In this document: positions 1,880-56,940 of the stretch, one piece after another | Position numbering within the stretch: position 1 is the first letter of the stretch | Layout of the letters: every line of letters starts with the position of its first letter | Source: Acidobacteriota bacterium | Lineage (GTDB): Bacteria; Acidobacteriota; Terriglobia; Versatilivoradales; Versatilivoraceae | Assembly (NCBI GenBank): GCA_022826755.1 | Contig: JAJDUG010000075.1 | Coordinates: forward strand, 1 to 64,000 | Direction of reading: 5' to 3' | Length of the DNA: 64,000 bases | The notes under the pieces: model-generated | Told to the model about the DNA's origin: nothing | The model's input: only the letters and a program-made list of their open reading frames with translations | Databases searched by the model: none | Position numbers and translations under genes: made by a program

Positions 1880-2011
1880 CAGGCGCAAGAAACAGAGTCT
1901 GCGGCGCGGCGCAGGCACACCGCCCCCTTCGCACGCCCGAGTACCAAACTGCCGGGGGCGCCTTCGCGAGGTCCCGCCAAGCGTCCCATTCATGAGTAAA
2001 GGATGAACAAC

Positions 2012-14653: not shown

Positions 14654-15138
14654 GGCTGGCGTTGCCCGGTTTTGGAGGCGTACCGCGGACAGAGTTGATC
14701 GACCTGAACTCCAAGGGCCTCCGTAAGCGCCTTGTGTTCATCCCAATCGCTGTCGGTCGCGTTCAGAATGACAGCATTCGCGACGACGGCAACCGCCAGG
14801 AACTTGCGGTCTGCCCGGTCCAGCCTATTTTCAGGCAACTCTTCAAAGCCTCGCCCATCGTCCGCCGAAGGGGTGATAGCAACTCTTCGTACTCGGTCAC
14901 TGCGGTACTGGTAGTTGAACACGTGCTTGAAGAAGGTGTCACCCACACCCGGCGTTCCCGAGAAGTTGAGGCGATTCTTGTATTCGCGCAGAATCTCCCC
15001 CTTGTCGTCGATGGCGACCACCTCATTCGCGACAACGGATCTGAGTTTCTTCACGCAAAGCATCTTGCATTGCAGGTCGGCGTGAGTCCGGCACCCATTG
15101 GCGGCGACCGCAACGTTGGTGTCCACGACAAATGCCAT
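14650..15138 (-). CDS. PIN-domain nuclease
   Basis: A 162-residue PIN-like ribonuclease. VVDTNVAVAANG puts the first metal-binding aspartate at residue 6. The acidic middle positions are in VAIDDKGEILREY (E52 region), and the C-terminal acidic residues are in LDRADRKFLAVA (D110) and NATDSDW (D129/D131). This is the full PIN active-site pattern. The ATG at 15,138 overlaps the stop of the ATPase gene (TAATG), and its own stop overlaps the RNA ligase start (ATGA). No antitoxin-like gene is next to it, so this is not a simple VapBC pair. PIN enzymes cut single-stranded RNA with metal ions and leave 5'-phosphate and 3'-hydroxyl ends. The target is unknown; control by the neighbouring ATPase is inferred. 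Confidence 0.88.
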   Translation of the reverse strand: MAFVVDTNVAVAANGCRTHADLQCKMLCVKKLRSVVANEVVAIDDKGEILREYKNRLNFSGTPGVGDTFFKHVFNYQYRSDRVRRVAITPSADDGRGFEELPENRLDRADRKFLAVAVVANAVILNATDSDWDEHKALTEALGVQVDQLCPRYASKTGQRQP

Positions 15139-29744: not shown

Positions 29745-30541
29745 GGTTGAGATTGGGCGGGCCGTGGCCCCTTGAACTGCAGGGGGCCGTAGACCTCGTA
29801 GGAGTGGAAGCCGCCGCTTTCGGTCACGGGGGCGGTAGCGGTATTGAGCGGCTGTTCCCAACGGGTGTCATAGTCATAGCGGCAGGCGGCCGCCTTCCAC
29901 ACCTCCCCCTCCTTCGGGATGGAGTTGCCGGCGTGATGCAGATCGGCCAGGGGAAGGGCCAGCTCCAGGGACCATCCCCGGTCGTCGTCCTCCGGATTAT
30001 TGAGGGTGCCGTCCACCGACACCGCCACCCGGAGTTGGCTGTCCCAGGCCGTTGCTTCATCCAAGGGGGCGCCGCGCTTGACGAAGTAGGCGTCGAAGAT
30101 CTGGTTGCCGGGACTGAACTCGAACTCGTAGTAGAGCAGGGAGGATTCCAGAGGCTTGATGAAGAGCTCCAGCACATCCTCCTCCCACAAGCGGGCGTCG
30201 CGGCCTTTCAGGGTGGAGCCGACATCCCGGTCCCGGGCCGTCATAGCCACGTAGAGTTCCTTCCCGTCCCAGAGAAACCTGGCCGAGGCCCGCGCCGGAG
30301 ACACCGGATTGCCCACGCCGTCGAACCGCAGCGGGATCTCCGGCGCCTGCTCCCAGGCCGCCTCGTCCGGGCGCCCGTCGATCTCGATGGGATCGCTGGT
30401 CAGATAGCAGGGAATGGGGTCGGCTACGGCCGACGGCGGGGAGCTGACCTCCGGAGTGGAATCGACCTCCGGGGCCGGAGAGCAGGAAAACGTGAACAGG
30501 ACGACAACAACTTGCGTGAGAAACCGAGTGTTGAATTGCAT
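29741..30541 (-). CDS. CBM9-like carbohydrate-binding lipoprotein
   Basis: A 266-residue lipoprotein. The hydrophobic leader LTQVVVVLFTFSC ends in a lipobox-like cysteine, followed by a proline/serine linker. From about residue 45 a family 9 carbohydrate-binding-like domain is visible: IEIDGRPDEAAWEQAP, ARFLWDGKELYVAMTARD, WEEDVLELFIKP and YYEFEFSPGNQIFDAYF. It ends with SYEVYGPLQF, usual for this domain. The ATG at 30,541 is taken as start. The stop overlaps the ATG of the FG-GAP gene, which suggests a cell-surface pair that binds polysaccharide or another cell. No catalytic residues for a hydrolase are apparent. Confidence 0.85.
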   Translation of the reverse strand: MQFNTRFLTQVVVVLFTFSCSPAPEVDSTPEVSSPPSAVADPIPCYLTSDPIEIDGRPDEAAWEQAPEIPLRFDGVGNPVSPARASARFLWDGKELYVAMTARDRDVGSTLKGRDARLWEEDVLELFIKPLESSLLYYEFEFSPGNQIFDAYFVKRGAPLDEATAWDSQLRVAVSVDGTLNNPEDDDRGWSLELALPLADLHHAGNSIPKEGEVWKAAACRYDYDTRWEQPLNTATAPVTESGGFHSYEVYGPLQFKGPRPAQSQP

Positions 30542-30699
30542 TGAATCCACCAACTTTCCATTTTCAGTTTTTTATGTGGCTTCAGGTAGTTGTGACTGTA
30601 GGGGCATCCCTGCAGCATCCACTCTTGGCTCCGGCGCATGCGACTCGCGGTGACCATCCACACCGCCCGCGTGTTCTTCTGTGTCGTCCACACACTCTA

Positions 30700-31800
30700 T
30701 CATTCTACGGGTTTGCACGCCTGATCCAACAGTTGCTCTGCATTCCTGAGAACACCCTTCGTAGCTTCCAAATCAAGCAAACCCCGACCATCCGTCTGAC
30801 GCCAATCGCCTTCCAGGACCGCAACCGTCATATGCTTACCGGTTCCGAAGTGGCCTGGCTTTCTCACGTCCATCCCTTTGAACCCCGCGGCCTTCAAGAC
30901 TTGCTGGCTCCAGTAACTTCTGCAGTCCCTTCGCCTTTCCCTCTCTTCGACTATGATCTTGAAGCACAGCTTGCACTGTTCAGCTTGCAGATACAACTCG
31001 TCTTTCCCGACGTCCGCAAAGTGCCACCAAAGCCCTAGAAAATCACCGATCGGGATGTATTTCCAATCCATGTCTCCCGAATACGTCTCTTCCAGGTAGC
31101 GATAAAAACCCTGCCAACCTTCCCAACACCACCTCTCCAGGCGCGTTTCCCGCCAAGAGTTGGAGCGAGTTTCCAACGTTTCGAGGCGAGCGTGAAAGTC
31201 TCCGAGAATTTCTGACAGGTCCCGATCACAACCCTGCAGGATATTGAGGAAGTCCTTCCGCTCGAACACGCGATAGGGCGGATCCAATTCGAGCTTTTCG
31301 ATACTGCACTTGTCCGAGAGCGACATGTTGCCTGTCTTGAGAAAAATGGGAAACAAATTGCTCGCGCAGGGTTTCACAGGCGTTCCCAAAAGTTCAAATT
31401 CGCCATCCAGCACTTTCTTATGGTACCTCTCCAGTTGATCCCCTTGCGCCCTGGAATCCGTTTTGTCCTCAATAAGCAGCGCGTACTTGTCGTTGACCCA
31501 CACCAGGACGTCGATGCTGGACACTTGCATCCCAAGTTTGACGGTGCAGATGTGGTCGGCCCCGGGGCGTTCATGTTTGTCGAAAAGCGCCCGCGCGAAC
31601 TTCTGGCCGCACTCGTGAAGATGTGGGTTCGTCTCCTTGTAGCATTCGTTGGCCCAGTCAAGCAGCCAGCAGATAATCGCGTCCTGCGACAATTCCTTGT
31701 GTCCGTAGTCAAACAGATTCGGGCATTTCTCATCATGTTCGTGCTTCCGGCAGCACTGCCCAAAAAGTATCGTAAGTATTCTCCCAACTGTTCCTCTCAT
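30700..31800 (-). CDS. PD-(D/E)XK nuclease superfamily protein
   Basis: A 366-residue protein of the PDDEXK_4-like nuclease group. The N-terminal helix ELSQDAIICWLLDWANE is characteristic. The catalytic core follows: VSSIDVLVWVNDKYALLIEDKTDS, with D, then E-x-K, in the expected spacing. The C-terminal half (WYIPIGDFLGLWWHF-like region and FKIIVEERERRRDCRSYW) has no assigned fold. The start is set at the ATG 31,800. An upstream in-frame extension to 31,890 has no leader of interest. It lies 124 bases downstream of the AIPR gene and in the same direction, so it may be the last gene of the restriction-type operon or a separate nuclease. DNA or RNA cleavage is likely from the fold only. Confidence 0.83.
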   Translation of the reverse strand: MRGTVGRILTILFGQCCRKHEHDEKCPNLFDYGHKELSQDAIICWLLDWANECYKETNPHLHECGQKFARALFDKHERPGADHICTVKLGMQVSSIDVLVWVNDKYALLIEDKTDSRAQGDQLERYHKKVLDGEFELLGTPVKPCASNLFPIFLKTGNMSLSDKCSIEKLELDPPYRVFERKDFLNILQGCDRDLSEILGDFHARLETLETRSNSWRETRLERWCWEGWQGFYRYLEETYSGDMDWKYIPIGDFLGLWWHFADVGKDELYLQAEQCKLCFKIIVEERERRRDCRSYWSQQVLKAAGFKGMDVRKPGHFGTGKHMTVAVLEGDWRQTDGRGLLDLEATKGVLRNAEQLLDQACKPVE

Positions 31801-31924
31801 AAGGCCCCCGTTCTGAACCGAATGTGCATGACCATCGTGACGGCAAACGGGCCGGTCAGCACCGGAGTCATTGCGGCACCACCCGCTCAAGATCCAACCG
31901 CATCAATGGAACGCACTCCAACGG

Positions 31925-34003
31925 TCACGTCCCGGACGGCAATTCACCCGTGTATCCTTCGGACTGCAACTTGCTCAACGCCTCGACCGCCCTGGAAGCC
32001 TGCCGTTCAGTCGGGGTCCTACCAGCCGGATTGGCCGCCACACCCAGCACCCCGACTTCGGTGGGTGTGAGCAACCCCTGTTCCGTGCCCCATGCGAGCG
32101 CGGCAGCCCAGAACGCGGGACCAGCGTTGACGACTGCTATCTGCGCCTCGACGCTGTTGAGTTGCCGCTGCTCGCGACGCGCGTTTCGAGCCAGGTCACG
32201 ACGTTCGTCGGTTGAGATCAGGCCATTGAGGAACGGCCGAGGCCACGCAATGACGAGTTCGGCGACACGGTTCCAACATGCCTGCTTCTTCGACCACTCC
32301 GTCACGTTGCTGATACCTGCGGGTGGAGAAACCAAGACGACGTGCACCGATTCGGCCACCACATTCAGAGCTGACCCCATTGCCGGCGGCGGTGCCTGCC
32401 GGCGCCAGATGTCGTGGAAGTCGACGGCTTGACCCCTTTCCCTCACATCGTGCGCCGTCTTGGCGATCGCATAAGCAACGATGTTGGCCCGATACCCGCC
32501 CTGATACCAAGGCTGGTCCGTGACCAGCCGCTCGGTTGCCTTGAAGACGATCGCCTTGGCAACAGCTTCGCGGTAAAACGCCTCGTTGAAATCGTCCGGG
32601 GCGGTTTTCCATCGCTGGCCGATGCGTCGTGCGAAGGCCCCGAAGTTCTTCTGCGCCCCGAGACTCACTTCGTGGGGGAGTTCCTCCCAGACGTTGACGA
32701 ACTTCGCCAAGTCAGTCTTCGTGAAGAGTTGCCGGCGCGGGTTTTCCAGATCGAACTTCTTGCGTTGCGCTGGCGTGAGCCCTCCGCGAGCGTCCGCGTA
32801 CTGGCCTCGAGCTCGCTCGTAGAACCACTTCGACTGCCGGAACGTGCCGTCCTGTGATGGCGCGTGGATGCGCCGGGAGAAACCCTCCATGCGAACGTGG
32901 AACGGATGATTGGCGAAGAAGTCGGCCGCGCTTACTCGGTTTTGGCTGTTGGCGAACTCGGATATCTTGGGCACCAACCTGTTCGCCCGTTCCGGATCGA
33001 CTACAGAAAGCTTCATCTGGACGAAGGTCTGCGACACGTCAACCTTGCGGCGGTGCGCCGAGTGGATTGATGCTGTCGTCTGTCCGCCGTTCACGATCTG
33101 GAAGTTCTTCAGTCGCCGCAGCAGCAGTCTGCCGGCGGCGTCCTCGATCTCGACTTTCTCGGCAGTAGCCGTGATGCCGTTGTTGTAGGCGAAGAACATG
33201 TTGGGTTCGTTCTCGATGGTCGACCTGATCCCCTTGTTGACCTTGCCGCGATGTTGCAGGAAGACCCGTACATTTTGTTCCAGAAGTCTGGTGCCCCACC
33301 GATCATAGATTGCTGCGAGTACCCTTCCGGGCATGATCGCAAGGTACGATTCATGGTCGGCCTCCGGCTGCTGGGCTGGAAGGACGGGAAGTGGGCCGCC
33401 AAAGCTGCCCGCCAGATCGACATCGATATCCTCTCGGCCGTGTCCGACTGTCGCCTGCCGGTAGAGCCGACCGATGTCCCACACGCTGTAGGTGATGGTC
33501 CTGCCGTGAAGCTCGTCCGCTTCGCGACCGTCGACTCTCTCGCTCAGCGCACGATTGGTGATCAGAAACAGGCGGACCCGACCGATGCGGCTCCAGCGCT
33601 TGGAAAGCAGATCCGCAAGCCCGAAGGCCGGACTCGTCTCCTCGAGCGCGTCGCGCCACTTGAGATCCAGGGCATGCCGAAGGAAATTGGAAAGCCTCCG
33701 GAAGATCGAGTTCATCTCGCTTCCGATAAGACGCCCAACGTCGGCCGATGGATGGAAGTCGGAGATCAGGAGACTGAAGGTGTCCGAGTCGTCGGCGGCG
33801 GGATCGCCGCCGTATCCATCGACGCGAATACCTCTCCCCGGCTGGCCCTGATAAGCAACCCGGTCGGCCGAGTCCAACTCGCCTGCCTCCATCAGGTGTT
33901 CGCAGAACTTGTGGAAGAAGACATCCTCGACGAAGTGGCCTTCGGCATCGGCTTCGGCGAGAATATCCTGGAAGAACTCGGTCGCGAATTCTTCAACAGT
34001 CAT
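31925..34003 (-). CDS. AIPR-family (abortive infection phage resistance) protein
   Basis: A 692-residue protein of the AIPR family, found in phage-defence and restriction-type loci. The central core is clear: MFFAYNNGITATAEKVEIED, LKNFQIVNGGQTTASIHSAH, and VPKISEFANSQNRVSAADFFANHPFH. The N-terminal part (SDTFSLLISDFHP, VRLFLITNRALSER) may be a PD-(D/E)XK-like fold. The biochemical role of AIPR is not firmly known. Its start overlaps the end of the DUF4420 gene by 11 bases, so the two are translated together. The C-terminal 130 residues, rich in alanine and arginine, are not recognised. Confidence 0.9.
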   Translation of the reverse strand: MTVEEFATEFFQDILAEADAEGHFVEDVFFHKFCEHLMEAGELDSADRVAYQGQPGRGIRVDGYGGDPAADDSDTFSLLISDFHPSADVGRLIGSEMNSIFRRLSNFLRHALDLKWRDALEETSPAFGLADLLSKRWSRIGRVRLFLITNRALSERVDGREADELHGRTITYSVWDIGRLYRQATVGHGREDIDVDLAGSFGGPLPVLPAQQPEADHESYLAIMPGRVLAAIYDRWGTRLLEQNVRVFLQHRGKVNKGIRSTIENEPNMFFAYNNGITATAEKVEIEDAAGRLLLRRLKNFQIVNGGQTTASIHSAHRRKVDVSQTFVQMKLSVVDPERANRLVPKISEFANSQNRVSAADFFANHPFHVRMEGFSRRIHAPSQDGTFRQSKWFYERARGQYADARGGLTPAQRKKFDLENPRRQLFTKTDLAKFVNVWEELPHEVSLGAQKNFGAFARRIGQRWKTAPDDFNEAFYREAVAKAIVFKATERLVTDQPWYQGGYRANIVAYAIAKTAHDVRERGQAVDFHDIWRRQAPPPAMGSALNVVAESVHVVLVSPPAGISNVTEWSKKQACWNRVAELVIAWPRPFLNGLISTDERRDLARNARREQRQLNSVEAQIAVVNAGPAFWAAALAWGTEQGLLTPTEVGVLGVAANPAGRTPTERQASRAVEALSKLQSEGYTGELPSGT

Positions 34004-35003
34004 CGCTGGCTCCCGAAGTGGTGATCGGAAGGGATGCGGGAACGACGAGGAATCCCTCGCAGTCCGGAAGAAAGATCATGTACCGGACGTTCCCGACTCC
34101 TCGTGGAACCATCGCGGGTGTTATCCGCGGGAATCTTCCACGCACTTCATAGAGAACTCCTTGCCCGACTACCCAGGACTTGTCCGAGTAGTCTTGCGTC
34201 CAGTCGAATCCGACGGCAGCCAGACGCTCCTCGAAGATTTCGACGGCGGCCATGTCCCGTCTGGCCAACACGACGCGGATTCTGGTCGCGATGTCGGTTA
34301 CCGTCAGAGCGTCCGGTCCTCCGTCGGCCGCAGTGGTCACCTCCGTGACGTGGAGAAACAACCTGTCGGCATTGCCTAACTCGAGCTGGTGTTCGGAGGA
34401 GATCGTCACGCGGGGTACTGCGGAACCCCGCGCCTTTGCCTCGACGTGGATCCGGGAAATCTCGAAGTCGTGGGGCGCTTCCAGCGGACCAGTCCAGCAC
34501 CGGACGGCATCCAGCGGGCCAAGCACGGGGAGCAGGTGGCTCTCCAGCACGACCAGTTCGCCGATCAATCCCCTCTGTTCGTCATCCCCGAGGCGCTTGT
34601 CACGACCACCCTGAAGAAGCCTGTGCCACCGCCAGGTACGCGCGAGGAACCGCTCTACGGCCTGCTCTTCGGTCTGCGCCAGTACCGTGGCGTCGACAAT
34701 ATCTCGACAAAATCGGAGAAAGATGTCTCTCTGTTCCGGGTCCGTCAGCCGAATGACGATCCGTTCGTCCGATCCGCCATCAGCAGGCTGCGCCTCGACC
34801 CGCAGGCCGCGGAGTCTCGGCAGGCGCCGTGACCGCTTGATCGTTCCCCTGTGCTGGAGGATCAGAAGCACGTTACGTTCGGCGTCCACCGCCCAGTACA
34901 GATCCCACGGTGTCGCCTGCGTGACACGTCGCGCGTTGATCTGAGAGACCTCCGGCGCGGCGATATCACGCCAAGGATCGTCACTCGCCATCACCTGCGT
35001 CAT
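33993..35003 (-). CDS. DUF4420 PD-(D/E)XK-motif protein
   Basis: A 336-residue protein of the DUF4420 family, annotated elsewhere as PD-(D/E)XK motif protein. The diagnostic segments are DEQRGLIGELVVLESHLLP and WTGPLEAPHDFEISRIHVEAKARGS, the second providing D and E-x-K of a nuclease core. The N-terminus DDPWRDIAAPE is also typical. In gene neighbourhoods described for MORC-like (paraMORC) restriction systems this protein accompanies a Z1 helicase and a GHKL ATPase, as here. Start sites at 35,003 or 34,991 both overlap the end of the Z1 reading frame. DNA cleavage is inferred from the motif. Confidence 0.9.
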   Translation of the reverse strand: MTQVMASDDPWRDIAAPEVSQINARRVTQATPWDLYWAVDAERNVLLILQHRGTIKRSRRLPRLRGLRVEAQPADGGSDERIVIRLTDPEQRDIFLRFCRDIVDATVLAQTEEQAVERFLARTWRWHRLLQGGRDKRLGDDEQRGLIGELVVLESHLLPVLGPLDAVRCWTGPLEAPHDFEISRIHVEAKARGSAVPRVTISSEHQLELGNADRLFLHVTEVTTAADGGPDALTVTDIATRIRVVLARRDMAAVEIFEERLAAVGFDWTQDYSDKSWVVGQGVLYEVRGRFPRITPAMVPRGVGNVRYMIFLPDCEGFLVVPASLPITTSGASDDC

Positions 35004-37692
35004 CCTCGTCGTCGTCCTCCGGGTAGTGTTCGCGCTCCCAGGTGGTGTTGACTACGTACTCGACCCTCTCTTCTTGACGGCTCGTCGCCGGGAAGCTGAT
35101 GCTCCATGCCACCACGGGCTCGTGTCCACGCAAATCGTCGTGGGCAGCTCCGATTGCGATCAGGTGGACCACGAGCAGTGCCCTTTTGCGAACTGGGCCG
35201 TAAATCCGGTCCGGGTAGTTCGCTCGCTTCGTCGCCGTGGAGTTGTTTGCGTCGTACTCGTCCTCCGCCTTGCGAGCATCTTCGTCGTCGACACCTATCC
35301 TTGCGATTCCCCTTGAGCTTACGCGCTGCTTGTTGGTGATCAGAAGCGTCTCATCGTCGCTTCGCAGACCCTTGGCACGCCGCTGGCAGATGAGCCGGAA
35401 GCCGAGGCTGGAATCCACCAGGGGCTTGGCGGGGGCCTGCTTCGGTGTGACACCGGCGAAGAGAATGTCCCATTCTCGAAGCTCGTCGCCCTGACGTTGC
35501 CGGATGTACTCGCGAACCGGCCCGGTCTCGGTGATCGCGGAACCTACATGATTGCGGAAGGCATTGAGAAACGCGTCCACGAACTGCACCGGCACACGGC
35601 GTACGAGGCGACCGCCACCGACCTGTTCCCCCTGCTCCGGCGGGAATCCGCTGCGTCGAAGCTGTTCAGCAAGGATGACGGCGGCTTGCCGGTTGGCTTG
35701 CAGACTCGACTGGTCTCGCCGCAGGATCGCCGTCTCCACGAAGTGATTGGCCAAGCCGATCAGTACCCGCAGGCTCCTGCCCGTTCCCATCTTGTTACGG
35801 GCGGTGACGACGAGCGTATCCGGATGGCTGCGTACTCGAAGCCCAAAGTCCTTCGGCGTGGCGTTCACGCTCTGCATGCGAGCCAGCTCGTCGCGAAGCT
35901 CCTCGATGGACTCGGCAATGTGCTCGTACCAGCCCTGCGCCTCCTCGGGCATCCACACGCGGCACAAGTCCTCGTACCCGCGCCGATAGCCAAACCACCG
36001 GCCCATTTGCAAGAGCGTGTCGTACATCATCGAGTTCCGCAGGAAGTAGCTGACGACAAGTCCCTCCAGCGTCAGGCCGCGGGAAAGCGAGAATCCTCCC
36101 ACGGCGATCACGTTCAGCCCCGAGGATTCGTGCGCCGCGTAATTCAGGGAACCGGCCGCTCGGCTATTCACCTCGACCACATTCACCGCGCTTGCGCTCT
36201 CGTGCAGTAGCGACTGGATGTCAGCCCAGGAAACTCCAGCGGAGTCCGCGTAGTGCTCTTTGAAAGCCTCGCGCAGCGCCGCGATTTCCGGGTCCCGCGT
36301 CGCTTGAGCCGGCGGTCTCGCACCGTTGACGCGAGCGCTGCTGCGGATTCGCCTGACTTGCGCATGGATCTCGTTGCGGATCTGGCCCTGTACGCGAACG
36401 AATCGCGAGACGTTCACCAGCATTGAGTTGTGCCGACCGATGTGCCCGCGGGCAAGCCGGATAGCGCGTGCGACGACAAAGACACGGATCGCCGTCTTCA
36501 GGGTCTCCGGTAGCTCCGTTACAGGGTGGTCAATTGGATGTTTCAGCGGCAACACGTCAGCGTGGTCGTCGACGTGGCGCAAAATGCGTTCCGAGTCGTC
36601 CGAAAACACCTTGGTTGCGCCAAAGTAGTTGTCCGGTGGGTCCAGACTGACGATGAAGTCGCGCGGGAACAAATCATGACCGAGCATCTCGTCGTCGCTG
36701 TCGGGATCGATGAAGATGTTCGCGAACGGAGTGGCGGTTTAGCCGACGTAGCAACTCCGATCAAAGAGCCGGAGAAGCTGCCTAATCTGCCCGTTGATCC
36801 TGGAAACCTCGTCCTGTCGATGCCGGATGTTGATCGAGGCGTTGTCCGCCTCGTCGTCGATAAGAAGCATCGGCTCACGGATAGTCGACGTCCCCCGTTG
36901 AACATTATGCGCGGTCAACCATTCGATCAGGTTCCGCAACGTGCTCGTATTCTTCTTGATCACGAACACCGCCGGCTCCACAAGGTTCTGGAGGGGCACA
37001 CCGACGCTGTCGGCGATTGTCTTGTTAAAATCCCGCTGGGACGTCGTGAACGCGGCGGGCCGCCGACGGAAATCGAAGCGGCCAACGCCGACGACGCTCT
37101 GGCTCGGGAGCGTGTTCTGCAGCAGATTGCTGGTACTGTCAAATCCGACGAAGCCCTCATCGATTCTTCGTTGAGTCTGATTGCGGAGGTTGTTGTGGAT
37201 GCCGGCAATGATGACGATCACCTTGTAGCCGGCGTCTGCGGCCTTGCAGACCAGTCCCGTATAGTTGGCGGTCTTGCCGGACTGGACATGACCGACGACC
37301 ATGCCCCGTCGGTCCCACTCTCCTGGTCTGGTCGGATTCTGGAGAAATCCGAGTATTCGGTCCGTCACGTCATCCAGCGTGGCAAGCACATGTCCGGAGA
37401 AGTCCTTGCTCACCAGCAGTTTGTGGTAGCGGTCCCAATAGTAGGGATCCAATCCGGAACGCGCCTCCTCCAGCCACGGCTCGAATCCGGTGTCCTGAAG
37501 GGCGGCGCCGTCCCTCATCATGACGCCGTGCACCTCCTCGAACCAGAGAGCCAACTTGTTCGCGTCCTCGTCCGTCACACCAGGAAAGGACCGTCTAAGC
37601 AGGCCAATGTACTCACGAATCTTCTCTTGCGTTGGCAGTTCGGTGCCGAGAACGCCACTGACCGCTGCCTTGAGCTTGTCGAGATCCTTCAC
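34981..37692 (-). pseudogene. Z1-domain helicase-like protein gene, interrupted by an in-frame TAA
   Basis: A Z1-family superfamily II helicase-like gene of 904 codons read in one continuous frame, but with TAA at 36,741-36,739. The first part (317 residues) has Walker A GHVQSGKTANYTG (134-146) and Walker B MLLIDDEAD. It stops in SCYVG*TATPFANIF, where the family has a tyrosine. The downstream part continues in the same frame (DLFPRDFIVSLDPP, NVIAVGGFSLSRGLTLEGLVVSYFLRNS, MGRWFGYRRGYEDL), so this is a nonsense change, not a frameshift. A TAC or TAT codon would restore it with one base. Both halves are well preserved, so the change is recent or an assembly error. The gene overlaps both neighbours by a few bases. 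Confidence 0.9.
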
Positions 37693-39185
37693 GATTCTCC
37701 CTGTGGTTCCGCCGTCAGAGCCTGGAGCACGTTGGCTGCCTCCTTCCAGCGTGCCCGGAACGGATCGGCCGATTGCATCCTTGTCTTCGCCTCGGGTTCC
37801 GACACCCCGTGTTCCCTTAGGGCGCTCCAGGTCGCTTCCACAATCTCCTTGAAGTCCTCCCGGGATAGCGCTGTCGGCACCACCGACTCGGCACTTGCGC
37901 TGACATCCGCATACAGTGCTTCGACGGGTAGCGTGGACACTATGAGCGCAACGAGCTTTCTGAATTGTTTGACCTTCGTCGACTCAAGCCGATCCTGGAA
38001 TGCGATGAAAAGCGGATGCTCAATATTGAGCCCGTACGATATCCGGTTCTTGTTCTGCGACCGCGTCCATACCGGCAAGCGGCTGTTTGCGGCCAGCCGT
38101 GAGCCGCGCACCGTATACGTCCGCTTCGACGGGACGCCGATCCGTTCAATGATGCGACGCAACCTCTCGCGAACCGGCGGTGGCGGCTGCGCCCAAGCTT
38201 TCTTGACGTCGATCTTCCACTCCGCGTCGAGACTGCTGGGCATGTCTATGCGGACGCGGCACAGTTTTGTGAGTTCTAGCTGCCGCGCGAGACCGAACCA
38301 CGTGCCGTGGACGATCAGCCGCCGATTCCGGTACAGGTAGAACCCCTGGTTCTTCACGTACCCTTCCGGTCCGCCGTACCGTGTCCAGTCGGCTTTCGAG
38401 ACCTTGTCATGGTGGGGCAGAGTCACCGGCTGGATCCGGATCTCCCTCTCGGCGAGCACGAAGGGCTCTTCCTGATGGTGCTGCGTCGCCGGATGATTCG
38501 AATGGAATGGATCGAAGGGCTTCAGCTCCCGACCGTTGAGGGAAATCTCCACGCGTCCCTCCCTGCCTTCCCTACCTGAGAGGAAGCGGTGAAACACGAA
38601 CTCCACATGCCGAGCTGTCTCGTCGAGTTGGCGAACGAGATCCCGGCGATCTCCCCGACCGTCGGCACCGACGAGGCGGTCGAGCTTCTGCCAGACGACG
38701 AGCGTTCCGTCCGCTGCAAGGCGGTTGGACCATGGAACGGTTTCGACACTCCCAGGAAGCTCGACAATCCACTTGTCGCGTACGGCAACGGTATCCAGGT
38801 CCCAGACCGCGCAGGAAGTCACACCGGCTCTGCGAGTGACCACGGTCAATCGACGGCACTGCGAGAACGACGCCGTCTTGAGTCCGAGACCAAATCGACC
38901 AAGGTCCCAGGCGGTTCTGTCGTCAAGGGGGCTCCGGCTGCCCGGTCGCATCGCTTCAAGGAGTTCCGCTTCGGTCATGCCGGTGCCATTGTCAAGTATC
39001 CCGATAATGGGGCTTTCGACATGCGTTTCCGCGAGCAACTCCACCGTCCGGGCTCCGGCGGTGAGCGAATTGTCTATGACGTCGGATATGGCTGTGTGCA
39101 ACGAGTAGCCGATGTCGCGCAGGCTTTCCACAAGGACCGATGCCTTGGGCGGAACCTCCTTCTCCCTCGTGGCACCCAACGTCAC
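37689..39185 (-). CDS. GHKL (MORC/MutL-like) ATPase of restriction-type system
   Basis: A 498-residue protein with an N-terminal GHKL ATPase domain. The N-box is AISDVIDNSLTAGA (32-45), the G1 box LDNGTGMTE (64-72), and the G2 lid LGRFGLGLKTASF (95-107). A second-domain segment, FYLYRNRRLIVHG, is the kind of S5-like fold seen in MORC and MutL homologues. MutL/MORC-like ATPases linked to methylases and Z1 helicases were described as parts of restriction-modification-type systems (Iyer, Abhiman and Aravind). The protein probably forms an ATP-driven DNA clamp that works with the nuclease parts. Its start overlaps the methylase stop by four bases (ATGA) and its stop overlaps the Z1 start in the same way. 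Confidence 0.9.
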   Translation of the reverse strand: MTLGATREKEVPPKASVLVESLRDIGYSLHTAISDVIDNSLTAGARTVELLAETHVESPIIGILDNGTGMTEAELLEAMRPGSRSPLDDRTAWDLGRFGLGLKTASFSQCRRLTVVTRRAGVTSCAVWDLDTVAVRDKWIVELPGSVETVPWSNRLAADGTLVVWQKLDRLVGADGRGDRRDLVRQLDETARHVEFVFHRFLSGREGREGRVEISLNGRELKPFDPFHSNHPATQHHQEEPFVLAEREIRIQPVTLPHHDKVSKADWTRYGGPEGYVKNQGFYLYRNRRLIVHGTWFGLARQLELTKLCRVRIDMPSSLDAEWKIDVKKAWAQPPPPVRERLRRIIERIGVPSKRTYTVRGSRLAANSRLPVWTRSQNKNRISYGLNIEHPLFIAFQDRLESTKVKQFRKLVALIVSTLPVEALYADVSASAESVVPTALSREDFKEIVEATWSALREHGVSEPEAKTRMQSADPFRARWKEAANVLQALTAEPQGES

Positions 39186-40837
39186 GACCCCTCCATGGCC
39201 ACCAGTGGCATTTGCCGCGCCGGGCCCGTAGGTTGTCGGCGCGAGGAAATCGAATCGTTGTTGCCGTGCGTTCCGACACTGTCATGACGGTCCAGCACGG
39301 TAGAAACCGTTTGAGCAATCTGATACGCGAGGAACGGTGGAACGGCGTTGCCAACCTGCACGTACTGTTGCGTGCGTGTACCGTGAAAGAAGTAATTATC
39401 CGGAAATGTCTGGAGACGTGCCACCTCCCTCACCGTGAGGCTCCGGCACTGGCCCGCATCAGGATGAATGAAATAGTGGCCGTCCTTCGACAGATGACTC
39501 GTTACTGTTGTAGATGGGCAATGGGCGGATTGCACCCGGAATCGGTCATCGAAATGACCGGTGTGCCAATTCGCGTGACTCGGCATGAGTGCCTTGGGAA
39601 AATCAAACGTCTTCGGCGAACGCCCAAAAGCATGGCCGAACGCCACCGCGAACAAGTAACGAGCCAGATCAGAGGCCATGTGCGCCCTGGTTTCATTGTT
39701 GGGTAACATCCGAATCCGTTCGTCGAAGATCCAGGCACGGAGTTCCGACGGGCAGTCTGCGGGAAGGGATGTCTTGCCAAGCACACCGCGACAGGGCGGC
39801 GCGGTCCCCTTCGTCGAGGCAAGAGCTCGGTCAAGTGCCCCTTGGAATCGGGCTTTCTCGACATTAGACATTGCCGGCTGATTCGCGTCGATCAGATCGT
39901 GGGCCGCTTGCACCGCGTCCTGCCAGGAACCGGGATGATCACCTCGGCTGAGGCGGCTGCGAAGCCTCGGCATCGCGCCAATGATGTCGTCCAGTGGCAC
40001 CGCGCCGCGTTCAGGTCCGAGCCGTGGCAGGTGTTCTTCCGCGAGCGATTCAGCAACGTCCCGCCGGACACAAATAACAAAGACCCGATGACGGGCCTGT
40101 GGCACGCCAAATTTCTCCGCGTGCACGAGGAAGTCCCCAGACTTGTGTGCGCCGTTCCGGGAGCGCACTCCCGAGCGAGAAGCAAGTGCGAAAAGTCGGT
40201 AGCTGTCCGTGCCGCCTGAATGCCGCAGTCGGCGCGCCACTTCCGGAAAGATCAGGTCACCGTTCCGCCGTGCTGAGAGCATCCCCTTGACGTTCTCCAT
40301 GACGGCAACCGCCGGGCGAAGCTGCGAAAGCACGTGCACGTATTCCTCGTAGAGCGACTGACGGGCATCCTCGTCAGCATCATATCCGGCATTGCCGGCG
40401 TTTCGCGACCTGCCGATCACAGAGTAGGCTTGGCACGGTGGACCGCCAAGAAGCACGGTTCGTCCTCCGTGTTCCGCCCGGATGCGTGCGATCCGGTCTC
40501 GTAGAAAGACACTAGCCTCGTGCGTGCCCAACTCCAAGCACCTGATCTCGTCTGAAGCAGCAGCCCACTGCTTGGGATAGAGGTCTTTCCAGTCGGGCTC
40601 GTCCGGGGTAACTCCGTTCAAGAAATCGTAGTACTCTGAAGGGAAACCCGTCTCGAACTTGTGCAAGAACGCACGTAACTTCAAGGTATGGTGGGCAACG
40701 CGGTCCTTCTCGATAGAAAGGGCGAGGCGGTACATGCGCCGACCGTTCAGTCGTTGGCATGCGGAAAAACCCTCTGCGAGCCCGCCGGGGCCCGCGAATA
40801 GATCCACAACTGGTACAATTGGCGTCACGGAGCGCAC
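39182..40837 (-). CDS. DNA (cytosine-5) methyltransferase
   Basis: A 551-residue 5-methylcytosine DNA methyltransferase. Motifs in order: I DLFAGPGGLAEGF (12-24), IV GGPPCQAYS with catalytic C135, VI AVMENVKGML, VIII PQARHRVFVICVR, IX RSLTVREVARLQTFPDNYFF, and X QQYVQVGNAVPPFLAYQIA. About 200 residues between motifs VIII and IX form the target-recognition region, so the recognised DNA sequence cannot be read from this text. It is the first gene of the leftward operon with the GHKL, Z1, DUF4420 and AIPR genes. The very short patch repair gene vsr is divergent from it, 180 bases away, which is the usual partnership for 5-methylcytosine systems. Confidence 0.96.
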   Translation of the reverse strand: MRSVTPIVPVVDLFAGPGGLAEGFSACQRLNGRRMYRLALSIEKDRVAHHTLKLRAFLHKFETGFPSEYYDFLNGVTPDEPDWKDLYPKQWAAASDEIRCLELGTHEASVFLRDRIARIRAEHGGRTVLLGGPPCQAYSVIGRSRNAGNAGYDADEDARQSLYEEYVHVLSQLRPAVAVMENVKGMLSARRNGDLIFPEVARRLRHSGGTDSYRLFALASRSGVRSRNGAHKSGDFLVHAEKFGVPQARHRVFVICVRRDVAESLAEEHLPRLGPERGAVPLDDIIGAMPRLRSRLSRGDHPGSWQDAVQAAHDLIDANQPAMSNVEKARFQGALDRALASTKGTAPPCRGVLGKTSLPADCPSELRAWIFDERIRMLPNNETRAHMASDLARYLFAVAFGHAFGRSPKTFDFPKALMPSHANWHTGHFDDRFRVQSAHCPSTTVTSHLSKDGHYFIHPDAGQCRSLTVREVARLQTFPDNYFFHGTRTQQYVQVGNAVPPFLAYQIAQTVSTVLDRHDSVGTHGNNDSISSRRQPTGPARQMPLVAMEGS

Positions 40838-41017
40838 TCGGACGGTGAGTTGGCACCAAACCTTCCGCCATCTCCCATGGCGGCGGCTTGGGCGCGACTT
40901 GGTTTGACTGATCCAAACCGTTCAGCACCGCTTTGCAGCATGGCGACAAGCTGGATCGCGTCGGAGGCATTTGGTCTGTTCCGTCGGCATCGAGACTCCC
41001 CCAATGTACGGTGCAGG

Positions 41018-41467
41018 ATGGCAGACATAGTGGATAGGACGACCCGCGCCCGCATGATGGCGAGGATCAGGAGCAGGGACACGCGGCCTGAGATGGCTCT
41101 TCGCCAAGCCATCCACAGTTGTGGACTTCGATTCCGCCTGCACGACAGGAAACTACCAGGGACTCCAGACCTTGTGTTTCGCCGGTTCAATGCTGTGTGT
41201 TTCGTGCACGGCTGCTTCTGGCACAGGCACGCCGGTTGTCCGTACACCACCATGCCGAGCACTCGCGAGAGGTTCTGGAAAGCAAAGTTCGACTCGAACA
41301 CCCAACGGGACCGACGCAACCGACGAGAACTGCTCGAAGCGGGCTGGCGCGTGGCAATCGTCTGGGAATGCGCCCTGCGCAAGCAGGCTGCGATGGAGAT
41401 TGCGCGGCAACTGGAACTTTGGTTGCACGGAAGCGCACCGGTGTTCGACACGAGTCCAGCTACCTAA
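41018..41467 (+). CDS. vsr: very short patch repair endonuclease
   Basis: A 149-residue Vsr-type DNA mismatch endonuclease, which nicks next to T:G mismatches that arise when 5-methylcytosine deaminates. The family N-terminus MADIVDRTTRARMMARIRSRDTRPE fixes the ATG at 41,018. The active-site region KLPGTPDLVFRRFNAVCFVHGCFWHRH carries the catalytic aspartate and histidines, and the zinc-site cysteines are in HAGC and VWECAL. The C-terminal segment RDRRNRRELLEAGWRVAIVWE is typical. It lies divergent from the cytosine-5 methylase, matching the need to repair its mutagenic product. Longer upstream frames to 40,850 look spurious. Confidence 0.95.
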   Translation: MADIVDRTTRARMMARIRSRDTRPEMALRQAIHSCGLRFRLHDRKLPGTPDLVFRRFNAVCFVHGCFWHRHAGCPYTTMPSTRERFWKAKFDSNTQRDRRNRRELLEAGWRVAIVWECALRKQAAMEIARQLELWLHGSAPVFDTSPAT

Positions 41468-41924
41468 AGCCCGGCGTGTCCTTGACCTATGCCATCCAGA
41501 GCCCGCAGGCCATGAGGGAGGTGGCTAAAATGGTACAGTCCAGATGGACTTCGGTCATCCACAAAACGGACAGGACTGTATCGGCTTGCAAGGAGGGTTC
41601 CCTTCCTGCGCTGCCTCCGCCGACCGAACCCTACAGCTTTGGCTGAACGCGAAGGCTCCTACTCCGCAATGGCGCGGCTGGGCCGAGGCAACCGTTTCGC
41701 GGACAGGCTACCGAGATCAGAGAAAATGTCGGAAGCGGAGCATGTTGTTACAGCGGGTCGCCTCCACACCCACCTGATTCTGGAGTGCCGGTACCGTGGC
41801 CATCCGCTGTTCCAGTGTCGCTCCAAGCTGTTGGCATGCTTTCCTGTGTCACCCGGTACACCGTCATTCAATAGGGAATTATAAACCAAATACGGATGGG
41901 AATTCGTCTCTGTTCCCTCACAGG
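41468..41924. other. intergenic stretch of 457 bases without a recognised gene
   Basis: Between vsr and the VOC-protein gene. The short frames here have no family-like motif, good start site or matching codon use. No clear hairpin, repeat or tRNA is visible. It marks the right edge of the restriction-type island. Confidence 0.6.
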
Positions 41925-42401
41925 CTATTCCGTAACGCCGGCCTGCTTCATGGCGGCCTCGGCCCGCTTCGCCATCTCCTCCTCGGAGACGTCCTCCACG
42001 TGGCTGCTGATCGTCCACACGTGGCCGAAGGGGTCGCTCAGCGTTCCGGACCGGTCTCCGTAGAACTGATTCTGCAGCGGACGCAATTCCTTGCCCCCGG
42101 CTTCGATTGCCTGCGGGTAGACCGTGTCGACATCGGCGACGTAGACCATCAGGCTCACCGAAGTTCCCCCCAGCGACTCGGGACCCTTGTAACCCATGTC
42201 GGGATACTCATCGGCGAGCATGACGGGGGAGTCTCCGATCCTGATCTCGGCGTGCCCGATCTTGCCGCCGGGAGCTTCCATTCGATACAGCTCCACGGCC
42301 CCAAGAGCCTTCTTGTAGAACTCGATGGCGGCGGCCGCGTCCTTCAGGATCAGATAGGGGGTGACCGAGTGGTACCCCTCGGGAATCGGTGAAACCGGCA
42401 T
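41925..42401 (-). CDS. VOC-family (glyoxalase/bleomycin-resistance fold) protein
   Basis: A 158-residue single-domain protein of the vicinal-oxygen-chelate superfamily, close to the PhnB-like branch. The segments VTPYLILKDAAAAIEFYKKALGAVELYRME, GHAEIRIGDSPVMLADEYPD, SVSLMVYVADVDTVYPQAIEAGG and FYGDRSGTLSDPFGHVWTISSHVEDVS are all standard. The substrate cannot be assigned; this branch includes many proteins of unknown role. The ATG at 42,401 is preceded by AAGGAGGA with seven bases spacing, which rules out the longer frame starting at 42,530. It is a single gene, downstream of the hydrolase-like gene in the same direction. Confidence 0.93.
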   Translation of the reverse strand: MPVSPIPEGYHSVTPYLILKDAAAAIEFYKKALGAVELYRMEAPGGKIGHAEIRIGDSPVMLADEYPDMGYKGPESLGGTSVSLMVYVADVDTVYPQAIEAGGKELRPLQNQFYGDRSGTLSDPFGHVWTISSHVEDVSEEEMAKRAEAAMKQAGVTE

Positions 42402-42531: not shown

Positions 42532-44253
42532 CTACGAGCGGTGCAGCACCGTGTCCCGCAGGGGCAGGCTGGGGCCCAGGTCGGGATCCTCGTTGCGGTG
42601 GTAGTTCCTGCCCATCAGGTAACGGATTTCCAGTTCTGCGTCGTGCAGAAGAATCTGGGGAACGATGGTGGGGTCCCGATGCTCCAGCGACACCTCTATT
42701 TCGTTTTTCCCCTTTCGAGGCCACTGGGAGGAATCCAGGCGATAGATGAACCAGTAGCCGAATCCTCCGCCCCGGTTGGGGGTGCTCATGCGATAGAGTT
42801 GGTTGATCTTGCGCAAACCCGAATCGGGCAGGGTCCGGCCGTTGAGGCGGAAGACCAGCCGATCCAGTTGATTGGTGTTCATCACCCGAAACCTCAGCAG
42901 CACCTCGTGGACACGTCCGGCCCGGTTCCAGAAGGGCAGGTCGTCGCTGACGGGCAGTTCCAGGCGCAGCGGCCGGCCTTCGACCAGCTTGCGGGGCAGC
43001 GGCATCCCGGGTTCCCAGGGAGGGGACTGGTAGCTGCCCGCGGTGGGGACGAGATAGAGCTTGTCCTTGGGGGCCATGATGTCGGGATGGGGGATCTCCC
43101 GAAGCTGTTCGTAGAAGGCGGCCCGATAGGGCCAGTTGGCTCCCTGAAACCACTGGTTGAGGTAGATGCCGTCGACCCCTTGATCCCAGTAGTTGCAGGC
43201 CGCCGCCCGGATCACTTCGATGGACCCGTTGGAGAGCCGGTCGGAGTCGACCATGCTGTTGAGCACGGCGAAAACGCGGGTGGGCGTGCCCTTGGCTGCC
43301 TCAAGCAATGGCCGGTAGTCGGCCGCATGGTCCACCCGCCCCCAGTAGACCCCGAAGGTCTCGCCGATGACCACGTCCACGATCCCCTGCCGCATCCACT
43401 CCCTCACGTCCAGTCCCAGCCCCAGGCAGGTGTCGAGGTCTCCGGGGACCCGGATGGCCAGCTCGCGGTCCGGTCCGGTCTCCTTCAAGGCCCGGTGGAC
43501 CCGTTCGATCCAGGCGGTCATGATGGGCCGGCCGGCTTCGACTTCATCGGGATGGAAGAAGTGGGGCGAGGGGCTCTGGTAGGCCAGCGTCAGCTCGAAC
43601 CCGTCCACCGGATAGTTCCCGAGTACCTCTTCGATGAGGGCGAAGCGCTCCTCCCGGACCTCCGGATGCTTGAAGTCCAGACTGGTGAGCCCGGGGAACT
43701 CCGGGTCGAGGTCTCCGGCGGCGCCGATCTCGAGGTGCTGGTTGTCCAGCCGGAAGAGGGAGCTGCGTACGTCTTCCTCGCGGGACCCGCGCCGGCCCTG
43801 GTTCACCAGCAGAGCGGGATAGAGCAGCATTCCCTTTTGGTGGGCCCGATCGCAGAGCACCTGCAACTGATCCAGCCCGGCGTCCAGCAGCGACCTGGCG
43901 TTCTGTCGGGCCCGCTGGAAGACCACGTGGGGCCACTTGCGGACATGGTGTCCGAACACCTCTCCCACCCGGGTGTCGTGAAAGACGGTGCGGCCGTCCC
44001 CCAGGCAGAAATTGAGCACTTCCACCGAGGTCTCCACCAGCTCGTCCACGGCAGCCTCCACCTCCTGCTCTTGGATGGGGGGCTCGTACATGTACATGAG
44101 GGGGTGGCGGCTGTCGTGGTAGAACATGATGCGCGGCTTCGTGCGGGCGTCGCCGGGCCGCGGCCGAATCGGCTCTACCGGCGCCGCCGGGGCCAGCAGG
44201 CCCGGAGCCAGGCCGGCGGCCAGGGCGGTTCTCACGAAATGGCGTCGTTTCAT
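42532..44253 (-). CDS. secreted glycosyl hydrolase-like protein (paralogue of the 22,266 gene)
   Basis: A 573-residue protein with a twin-arginine type leader (MKRRHFVRTALAAGLAPGLLAPA). It is clearly related to the protein at 22,266-23,942: IMFYHDSRHPLMYMYEPP matches VIFYSDGRHSSVYLYEPP, FCLGDGRTVFHDTRVGEVFGHH matches YAVGDCSVLLYDTKVGERWGHN, and LLEAAKGTPTRVFAVLNS matches VVEAAKGTKVKVLAGINN. A TIM-barrel-like core (VDGFELTLAYQSPSPHF) and a C-terminal beta-sandwich (VFRLNGRTLPDSGLRK) are retained. The ATG at 44,253 is chosen for its Tat leader. The substrate is unknown. It shares a 178-base upstream region with the divergent FitA-like gene. Confidence 0.8.
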   Translation of the reverse strand: MKRRHFVRTALAAGLAPGLLAPAAPVEPIRPRPGDARTKPRIMFYHDSRHPLMYMYEPPIQEQEVEAAVDELVETSVEVLNFCLGDGRTVFHDTRVGEVFGHHVRKWPHVVFQRARQNARSLLDAGLDQLQVLCDRAHQKGMLLYPALLVNQGRRGSREEDVRSSLFRLDNQHLEIGAAGDLDPEFPGLTSLDFKHPEVREERFALIEEVLGNYPVDGFELTLAYQSPSPHFFHPDEVEAGRPIMTAWIERVHRALKETGPDRELAIRVPGDLDTCLGLGLDVREWMRQGIVDVVIGETFGVYWGRVDHAADYRPLLEAAKGTPTRVFAVLNSMVDSDRLSNGSIEVIRAAACNYWDQGVDGIYLNQWFQGANWPYRAAFYEQLREIPHPDIMAPKDKLYLVPTAGSYQSPPWEPGMPLPRKLVEGRPLRLELPVSDDLPFWNRAGRVHEVLLRFRVMNTNQLDRLVFRLNGRTLPDSGLRKINQLYRMSTPNRGGGFGYWFIYRLDSSQWPRKGKNEIEVSLEHRDPTIVPQILLHDAELEIRYLMGRNYHRNEDPDLGPSLPLRDTVLHRS

Positions 44254-44350
44254 CGAGGCCTCCTTGCAGGATGGTTGGAATGAGTGTTGGTCGGGTCCAT
44301 TATGGTACGGTAGGTGATTCGTTTCTCCGATAAACTGCGCCGCTTGCAGG

Positions 44351-44402
44351 CCAATGCTTCCAACGCTTTCTTGATTGCAATGCAATCATGGTGTAGCATT
44401 GG
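44351..44402 (+). promoter_or_regulatory. promoter and nested inverted repeats before the FitAB-like genes
   Basis: An outer inverted repeat CCAATGCT (44,351-44,358) / AGCATTGG (44,395-44,402) encloses an inner palindrome ATTGCA-A-TGCAAT (44,374-44,386). TTGATT (44,371-44,376) and TAGCAT (44,394-44,399), 17 bases apart, form a plausible sigma-70 promoter inside the repeats. FitAB-type complexes repress their own promoter by binding inverted repeats, so this is a likely operator (inference). Confidence 0.55.
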
Positions 44403-55569: not shown

Positions 55570-56940
55570 TTACCGAATCAAGCCGGCCTGAACGGCCAGT
55601 CCAAAGACCACGCATCCGATGATGACCCCGGCCGAAGCCAGCAGCAGCACGGCCACCGGACGGCTCATTCTCAGAGGCCGCTCTGTGCGGAAGGCCAGCC
55701 AGCAGATGGCGATGGTGGCCAGGGGCGTGCCGGCCACGCCGATGATGTAGTGGCTGACCAGCACCATCAGGGCGGGCCGGGTGGGGACCAGCAGATAGAG
55801 GGTGAGCACCGACGCCAGAAAGGCGGTCTGGACCACCTGCTGGGACTTGCGCACGGCCTGGGGGCGGCTTCGGTCGACCAATCCCAGGCTGCACAGGAAG
55901 TCGGTGATGATCCGCCCGTTGACGGCCGTGGCCGCCAGCAGGGTGGAAAGCAGGGTGGCCATGGCGCTGACCAGGAAGATGCCCTTGGACCAGGGACCGT
56001 AGCTTTCGGTAAAGATGGAGGAAATCTGGTCGACCACGCCGATGCCCGCCGGCGTCATGCCCAGCGGAAAGAGAATGGCCGCTCCCAAGATGAAGTAGGC
56101 GGCCGTCACCGCCGTAGCCAGCAGGGTGGCCAGGCCGGCATCCACTTTGAGCATTCGGATCCAGCCCCGGGCCCGTTCGACCCAGCCCTTGGAATCCCTC
56201 GGCCCCAGAAGTCTGCCGTAGCCCTTCTCCAGCACCCAGTAGGGGTAGACCACCAGCTCCGCGCCGGAGACCCCCAGGGCGCCGATGAGGCTGATGACGG
56301 CGAAGGCCGCCAGGCGAACCTCGGTATCTCCCAGGGAAAAGCCCAGGCCTGACCACAAGTCGGCTCCGCTCACGCTGAAGGGGGTCCCTTGAAGCATGAC
56401 CAGGCCCACCAGCGCCGACACGCTCAGCAGCAGGGCCAGGCCGATCATCATCTTCTCCAGCCGCCCGTAGAGACCCCGCCAGAGCAGCAGTTGGACCGCG
56501 ACCACCACCAGCACCGCCCAGATTCGAGCCGATCCGATGGCGTTGGAGGAGAGCGGCACGATTCCATGCATCAGGCCGGCCATGGCTCCCACCAGCCCCG
56601 AGGAGCCCACCTGGGCCAGCAGCCACCCCAGCATGAAGCCCCACACCAGCCAGGAGGTCTGCCGCAGGCGGGGACCGGGAAAGGGGCTCAAGGCCTCGAA
56701 GACGGTCCGGTTGTGAACCAGGCAATAGCGGCCCACCTCGACCTGGAGAAAGTACTTGATCACGCAGGACAGCAGCACCGCCCACAGCAGAACGAAGCCG
56801 AACCTGGCCGCCTGCAGCGGCGTGTTGATCAGCTCGCCCGAGCCGATCACTCCGGCCGCCAGCACGATCCCCGGTCCCACGGCAAGCAGCATCGGCCAGG
56901 GCCTGACCGGTGCGTTTCTGATGGGAGAGTCGGAACTCAT
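55570..56940 (-). CDS. Nramp-family transporter, non-canonical metal site
   Basis: A 456-residue inner-membrane protein with about 11-12 helices. The first helix reads GPGIVLAAGVIGSGELI; the DPGN motif that binds divalent metals in typical Nramp proteins is not present. The sixth-helix region GALGVSGAELVVYPYWVLEKGYG also lacks the MPH motif. This matches a divergent Nramp branch whose substrate is unknown. Given neighbouring oxidoreductase and aldolase-like genes it may carry an organic acid or a metal used by those enzymes (inference). The ATG at 56,940 has no strong ribosome site. It is followed downstream by the LDH2-type gene. Confidence 0.85.
   Translation of the reverse strand: MSSDSPIRNAPVRPWPMLLAVGPGIVLAAGVIGSGELINTPLQAARFGFVLLWAVLLSCVIKYFLQVEVGRYCLVHNRTVFEALSPFPGPRLRQTSWLVWGFMLGWLLAQVGSSGLVGAMAGLMHGIVPLSSNAIGSARIWAVLVVVAVQLLLWRGLYGRLEKMMIGLALLLSVSALVGLVMLQGTPFSVSGADLWSGLGFSLGDTEVRLAAFAVISLIGALGVSGAELVVYPYWVLEKGYGRLLGPRDSKGWVERARGWIRMLKVDAGLATLLATAVTAAYFILGAAILFPLGMTPAGIGVVDQISSIFTESYGPWSKGIFLVSAMATLLSTLLAATAVNGRIITDFLCSLGLVDRSRPQAVRKSQQVVQTAFLASVLTLYLLVPTRPALMVLVSHYIIGVAGTPLATIAICWLAFRTERPLRMSRPVAVLLLASAGVIIGCVVFGLAVQAGLIR

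What the first reader, a model, noticed from the sequence alone, without database searches (positions are those of the whole stretch)
36739..36741. In-frame TAA in the Z1 helicase gene of an otherwise intact restriction-type operon
The reading frame on both sides of the TAA is continuous and well preserved. The stop replaces the tyrosine of the Y-T-A-T-P-F-A-N motif, a single-base change from TAC or TAT. All overlapping neighbours are intact. Options: recent inactivation that frees the cell from restriction while the methylase stays active, a phase-like reversible mutation, suppression, or a sequencing error.
Basis: seen in the sequence. Interest (0 to 1): 0.6.

Follow-up and report, generated by a model that had tools for sequence, protein, structure and literature searches.

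The report
Nonsense-broken helicase in MZA-like defence operon
A single stop codon cuts the DNA-helicase gene of an otherwise intact, horizontally acquired bacterial anti-phage operon roughly one third of the way in, most simply a very recent switching-off of the restriction arm while the protective DNA methylase stays whole, which is an ordinary event in bacterial evolution.

Summary
On the minus strand a TAA at 36739-36741 interrupts a 903-codon Z1 helicase gene at codon 318. It is the only disruption: 317 open codons lie before it and 585 after it. Eleven of eleven homologous loci have a tyrosine codon there, and the site abuts the T-A-T helicase motif.

The operon (Dcm methylase, MORC/MzaB, Z1/MzaC, DUF4420 nuclease/MzaD, AIPR/MzaE, divergent Vsr) belongs to the published MORC-Z1 restriction/defence group ("type II", MZA-like). 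It sits on an ~11.4-kb island missing at the same site in five congeneric species.

Best explanation: a real, very recent nonsense mutation that removes the helicase and, by polarity, may lower the nuclease and AIPR, while methylase and MORC upstream stay intact. No relaxed selection or second lesion is seen.

Against suppression: no UUA-anticodon tRNA among 42 found, and TAA ends other predicted genes. Against slipped-strand phase variation: no repeats at the site. A base-call error cannot be excluded without reads but is less likely a priori.

One relative has an independent TGA in the same gene, another a frameshift, so Z1 breakage recurs at low frequency. Restriction genes broken beside intact methylases are well known. 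Low interest.

The parts
36739..36741 (-). in-frame TAA at codon 318 of the Z1 (MzaC-like) gene; homologues have Tyr (TAC/TAT)
34981..37692 (-). Z1-domain SF2-type helicase gene (MzaC homologue), interrupted by the TAA; GTG start overlaps the MORC stop by 4 nt
36742..37692 (-). 317-aa N-terminal half: Walker A (GHVQSGKT, 134-141) and DDEAD (279-283), no later motifs
34981..36738 (-). 585-aa C-terminal half: T-A-T motif, Pfam Z1 domain (PF10593) and QMGRWFGYR motif, no ATP-binding loop; first in-frame ATG at 36687
39182..40837 (-). C5-cytosine DNA methyltransferase (Dcm type), intact
37689..39185 (-). MORC/GHKL ATPase (MzaB homologue), intact
33993..35003 (-). DUF4420 PD-(D/E)XK protein (MzaD homologue), intact; overlaps the end of Z1 by 23 nt
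31925..34003 (-). AIPR protein (MzaE homologue), intact; overlaps DUF4420 by 11 nt
41018..41467 (+). Vsr mismatch endonuclease, divergent (ORF opens at 40850; start at 41018 inferred from the family match)
30490..41914 (.). acquired island holding the operon; the flanks align to five congeneric genomes that lack it here

Best explanation
A real and very recent point mutation has made a nonsense codon in the Z1 helicase gene of a MORC-Z1 (MZA-like) restriction/defence operon. Shown: the two halves separate motifs I and II (N half) from the T-A-T motif and the later motifs (C half), so neither product carries the complete motif set. Inferred: early termination is polar on the coupled downstream DUF4420 nuclease and AIPR genes, while Dcm and MORC, translated upstream, are unaffected. 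The cell would then keep methylation but lose or weaken phage and DNA restriction, a loss that is safe because the methylase remains. Partial rescue by restart at the in-frame ATG shortly after the stop (36687) cannot be excluded but would not rebuild the broken N-terminal ATPase domain.
For: Single in-frame TAA, both halves homologous to adjoining parts of one protein; intact tyrosine codon in 11 of 11 related loci; the stop lies in a predicted beta strand (312-319) next to the invariant TATP motif; fold matches are helicases, including HsdR of EcoR124I (weak scores). Neighbours intact. No other Z1 in the genome. Recency: no second lesion, and nonsynonymous/synonymous changes on the window lineage are not raised against L008 (C half 41/70 against 41/57, p = 0.48). 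The island is species-specific among seven congeneric genomes. No suppressor tRNA found, no repeat at the site. Independent breaks of the same gene exist: TGA in L012 and a frameshift at a G run in L102. Precedents: hsdR W197* in S. aureus RN4220 (PMC12554148) and hsdR disrupted with methylation kept in M. agalactiae (PMC9465063).
Against: The genome is a draft in 81 contigs and no reads or second strain could be inspected, so a consensus error is open. Polarity, loss of restriction and methylase activity are inferred, not measured. The lack of relaxed selection fits an error as well as a recent mutation.
Confidence: 0.72

Rival explanations
1. Sequencing, assembly or strain-mixture error: the true consensus is a sense codon and the gene is intact.
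For: Draft genome of 81 contigs; no second lesion and no relaxed selection; single-base difference from the relatives' codons.
Against: The site is not in a homopolymer or repeat, where such errors concentrate. Nonsense mutations occur in this gene elsewhere (L012). My estimate, from general knowledge and not computed from data: a consensus error that makes a stop in one given gene is about 1 in 1000 or rarer, against a few per cent for a broken mobile defence gene.
Confidence: 0.2
2. Reversible switch or standing polymorphism: the stop is one state of an on/off variation in the population, lifted by reversion when phage pressure returns.
For: A relative (L102) has its Z1 frameshift inside a run of about ten G, a classic variable tract; hsdR on/off switching by tract length is suggested in M. 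agalactiae (PMC9465063).
Against: The window's stop is a plain substitution with no tract or short tandem repeat around it; point reversion is slow and not a programmed switch.
Confidence: 0.05
3. Readthrough or recoding: UAA is decoded as an amino acid at useful levels and a full-length helicase is made.
For: Reading frame fully preserved after the stop; C half not relaxed in constraint.
Against: No tRNA with UUA anticodon among 42 found (the list lacks some expected tRNAs, e.g. Ile-GAT, so it is not complete); TAA ends other long predicted genes in the window (2003-3805, 15138-16517, 55570-56940); relatives have a sense codon; UAA is generally the least leaky stop (general knowledge).
Confidence: 0.02
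4. Functional split gene: two separately translated halves assemble into a working helicase.
For: In-frame ATG 36687 shortly after the stop; both halves otherwise intact.
Against: No relative is split at this place; the break runs through a core strand of the first RecA-like domain, not a linker.
Confidence: 0.01

Closest known systems
'Type II' Z1 defence system of PMC9523054 (Nat Commun 2022)
   Same: Same gene set: Z1 protein of ~900 aa, PD-(D/E)XK DUF protein, cytosine methyltransferase, AIPR, association with MORC; described as distantly related to mzaBCDE.
   Different: Here the Z1 gene carries a nonsense codon.
MORC/Z1 restriction-modification operons, third type of Iyer, Abhiman and Aravind 2008 (PMC2292703)
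   Same: MORC, SF2 helicase with the DThhQXuRhFG motif (here DTLLQMGRWFG), RE-fold nuclease, DNA methylase, Vsr and AIPR in one neighbourhood.
   Different: Interrupted helicase.
MZA (mzaABCDE) anti-phage system
   Same: Homologues of MzaB, MzaC, MzaD and MzaE in the same order.
   Different: All far below NCBIfam's equivalog cut-offs (MzaC C half 302 against 1500 bits); no MzaA was found; a Dcm gene is present.
Nonsense or frameshift hsdR alleles with intact hsdM/hsdS (S. aureus RN4220 W197*, PMC12554148; M. agalactiae, PMC9465063)
   Same: Restriction motor subunit broken, methylase left intact.
   Different: Type I systems, tested in the laboratory; here a MORC-Z1 system known only from sequence.

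Membership tests
Type II Z1 system (PMC9523054) / MORC-Z1 RM operon (PMC2292703) | Z1-domain SF2 helicase of about 900 aa | tested here: met
   PF10593 E 2.3e-80 in the C half; ~900 codons read across the stop; motifs conserved
Type II Z1 system (PMC9523054) / MORC-Z1 RM operon (PMC2292703) | PD-(D/E)XK DUF4420 protein | tested here: met
   PF14390 E 3.8e-65
Type II Z1 system (PMC9523054) / MORC-Z1 RM operon (PMC2292703) | cytosine methyltransferase | tested here: met
   PF00145 E 1e-39; TIGR00675 over cut-off
Type II Z1 system (PMC9523054) / MORC-Z1 RM operon (PMC2292703) | AIPR protein and MORC-type GHKL ATPase | tested here: met
   PF10592 E 1.9e-101; PF13589 E 9e-30; MzaB profile E 1.7e-90
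Type II Z1 system (PMC9523054) / MORC-Z1 RM operon (PMC2292703) | working restriction or phage defence | not testable with these tools
   no functional data; the Z1 gene is interrupted
MZA (mzaABCDE) | equivalog-level MzaB, MzaC, MzaD, MzaE | tested here: not met
   scores 352, 235/302, 102, 361 against cut-offs 850, 1500, 420, 1050
MZA (mzaABCDE) | MzaA (sigma-factor-like) gene | tested here: not met
   no MzaA match among the island proteins scanned against PADLOC and NCBIfam; short unscanned ORFs not covered
Pseudogene by nonsense mutation | internal stop at a site where homologues have sense codons, remaining frame recognisable | tested here: met
Pseudogene by nonsense mutation | stop present in reads / in further strains | not testable with these tools
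   no reads and no second genome of the species held

The most novel reading that the evidence does not exclude
The two motor ATPases of this family (Z1 and MORC) are preferentially broken while methylase, nuclease and AIPR stay intact, so that lineages repeatedly keep a disarmed, modification-only form. In the sampled loci, lesions were seen in Z1 (window, L012, L102) and MORC (L016, L112, perhaps L095 and L102), none clearly in DUF4420, AIPR or Dcm. The count is post hoc and small, and some lesions lie at homopolymers and may be sequencing errors.
Probability: 0.07. Interest if true: 0.4.

Novelty: new member of a known kind. Interest (0 to 1): 0.17.

Why it matters
If real, it is a natural knock-out of the helicase of a widespread but uncharacterised MORC-Z1 defence system, caught before further decay. 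It shows the usual order of loss: restriction first, methylase kept. That is a modest addition; similar cases are well known for type I systems.

Tried and rejected
Suppressor tRNA: the tRNA genes found in the whole genome were collected and typed; none reads UAA. Genome-wide recoding of TAA: rejected, since TAA ends other long predicted genes. Phase-variable repeat: none around the stop. Intact second copy: none. Viral relatives: none found. Closest plasmid relatives: Devosia CP104975 looked like a split Z1, but MORC and AIPR are in pieces too, so a decayed or low-quality locus, not used. Relaxed selection after the stop: not seen. In-frame TGAs listed in paralogues of the flanking gene 42535-44385 looked like selenocysteine at first; in the copy inspected (L157) they lie just upstream of the open frame and are reading artefacts. 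Same-species strains: none in the collections.

Full report
OBSERVATION. It closes a 317-aa ORF (37692-36739), and the same frame is open from 36738 to the TGA at 34981. The halves match consecutive positions of one protein model, PADLOC MzaC 69-339 and 341-790 and NCBIfam MzaC 66-334 and 336-793. The Pfam Z1 domain lies wholly in the C half. No other stop or frameshift is present. In 11 of 11 related loci (L007-L017) the codon is TAC or TAT.

THE OPERON. On the minus strand: Dcm-type methylase 40837-39182, MORC/GHKL ATPase 39185-37689, Z1 37692-34981, DUF4420 PD-(D/E)XK 35003-33993, AIPR 34003-31925. All neighbouring genes overlap, by 4, 4, 23 and 11 nt. A Vsr gene is divergent at about 41018-41467. 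The set matches the third MORC operon type of Iyer et al. 2008 (PMC2292703), whose helicase motif DThhQXuRhFG is present here as DTLLQMGRWFG, and the 'type II' Z1 system of PMC9523054, described there as about 20% identical to mzaBCDE. Homology to MzaB-E is clear, but scores are far below the equivalog cut-offs, so it resembles MZA in layout but is not filed as MZA.

ORIGIN. In same-genus genomes the genes flanking 30490-41914 are neighbours or separated by unrelated DNA. Alignment of the window with the sites of G006, G003 and G002 stops at about 30489 on the left and resumes at about 41900-41935 on the right; in G006 about 200 bp stand in place of ~11.4 kb. No Z1 relative of this kind was found in the six congeners. 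GC at third codon positions is 0.73-0.75 in the operon genes scored, against about 0.82-0.88 in many neighbouring genes. The operon was therefore most likely acquired horizontally; close relatives sit in Vicinamibacteria, Gamma- and Alphaproteobacteria MAGs.

WHAT THE STOP DOES. Codon 318 lies in a strand (312-319 of the predicted model, mean pLDDT 71.6) directly before the invariant T319-A320-T321-P322. Walker A (134-141) and the DDEAD box (279-283) fall in the N half; T-A-T and QMGRWFGYR (562-570) fall in the C half. Fold comparison gives helicases, PriA, HsdR of EcoR124I and Hef (E 3e-5 to 2e-4, low TM-scores); no solved relative was found by sequence. Inference: neither half is an active helicase. 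Because translation is coupled and the stop lies ~1.7 kb before the DUF4420 start, polarity on DUF4420 and AIPR is likely, while Dcm and MORC are upstream. This is inferred, not shown.

AGE. 3.0% of possible single substitutions in the gene make a stop; no second one and no frameshift is present. Using L007 as outgroup, nonsynonymous/synonymous changes on the window lineage are not raised compared with L008 for Z1 (49/109 against 55/76), for its C half (41/70 against 41/57) or for the neighbours. The stop is thus very young, or it is an error.

ALTERNATIVES. The genome's 42 detected tRNAs were fetched and typed: none has a UUA anticodon; some expected tRNAs (Ile-GAT, Ala-TGC) were not in the list, so it is not complete. 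TAA ends other long predicted genes in the window. No repeat surrounds the stop. No second Z1 exists. Error remains possible, since reads are not available. The size of that risk is judged from general knowledge, not measured.

FREQUENCY. Among 45 Z1-bearing loci of broad origin, 42 Z1 genes are intact in one frame. The three others are the window, L012 (TGA at codon 97; the near relative L010 is open) and L102 (frameshift at a G run). DUF4420 was intact in 45 of 45 and AIPR in 35 of 35 readable cases. Dcm showed no clear break: the four partial matches appear to lie at contig or fetch ends or to be divergent. MORC is split in L016 and L112 and damaged or partial in L095 and L102. A rough Fisher test of 5 lesions in 86 Z1/MORC genes against 0 in 116 others gives p = 0.013. 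This was chosen after looking, the loci are not independent draws, and several lesions are at homopolymers, so it is only a lead. The genome searches that report internal stops listed, among full-length Z1 matches, none besides the window and L012.

CONCLUSION. The finding is a genuine feature of the sequence with an ordinary explanation: a recently broken restriction motor gene beside an intact methylase, as in RN4220 hsdR W197* (PMC12554148) and M. agalactiae hsdR (PMC9465063).

Noticed in passing
30490-41914: Insertion site of the island; the same intergenic region or its edge holds different cargo in congeners: trypsin/NHL protein in G004 (L167), large leucine-rich-repeat proteins in G001 (L166), almost nothing in G006, G003 and G002.
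   Followed up: partly
L012:5338-5340: An independent TGA at codon 97 of the Z1 gene in an alphaproteobacterial MAG with all other operon genes intact.
   Followed up: yes
L102 (G992), about 5808-5896: Z1 frameshift at a run of about ten G; may be a variable tract or a sequencing error; MORC is also only partly matched there.
   Followed up: partly
30700-31890: A PD-(D/E)XK_4 nuclease-family gene with the lowest GC3 of the area (0.65) lies at the left edge of the island; weak PADLOC PDC-S26 match.
   Followed up: no
42535-44385: Member of a glycosyl-hydrolase-like (GHL10-related) family with about 40 paralogues per genome in this genus.
   Followed up: partly
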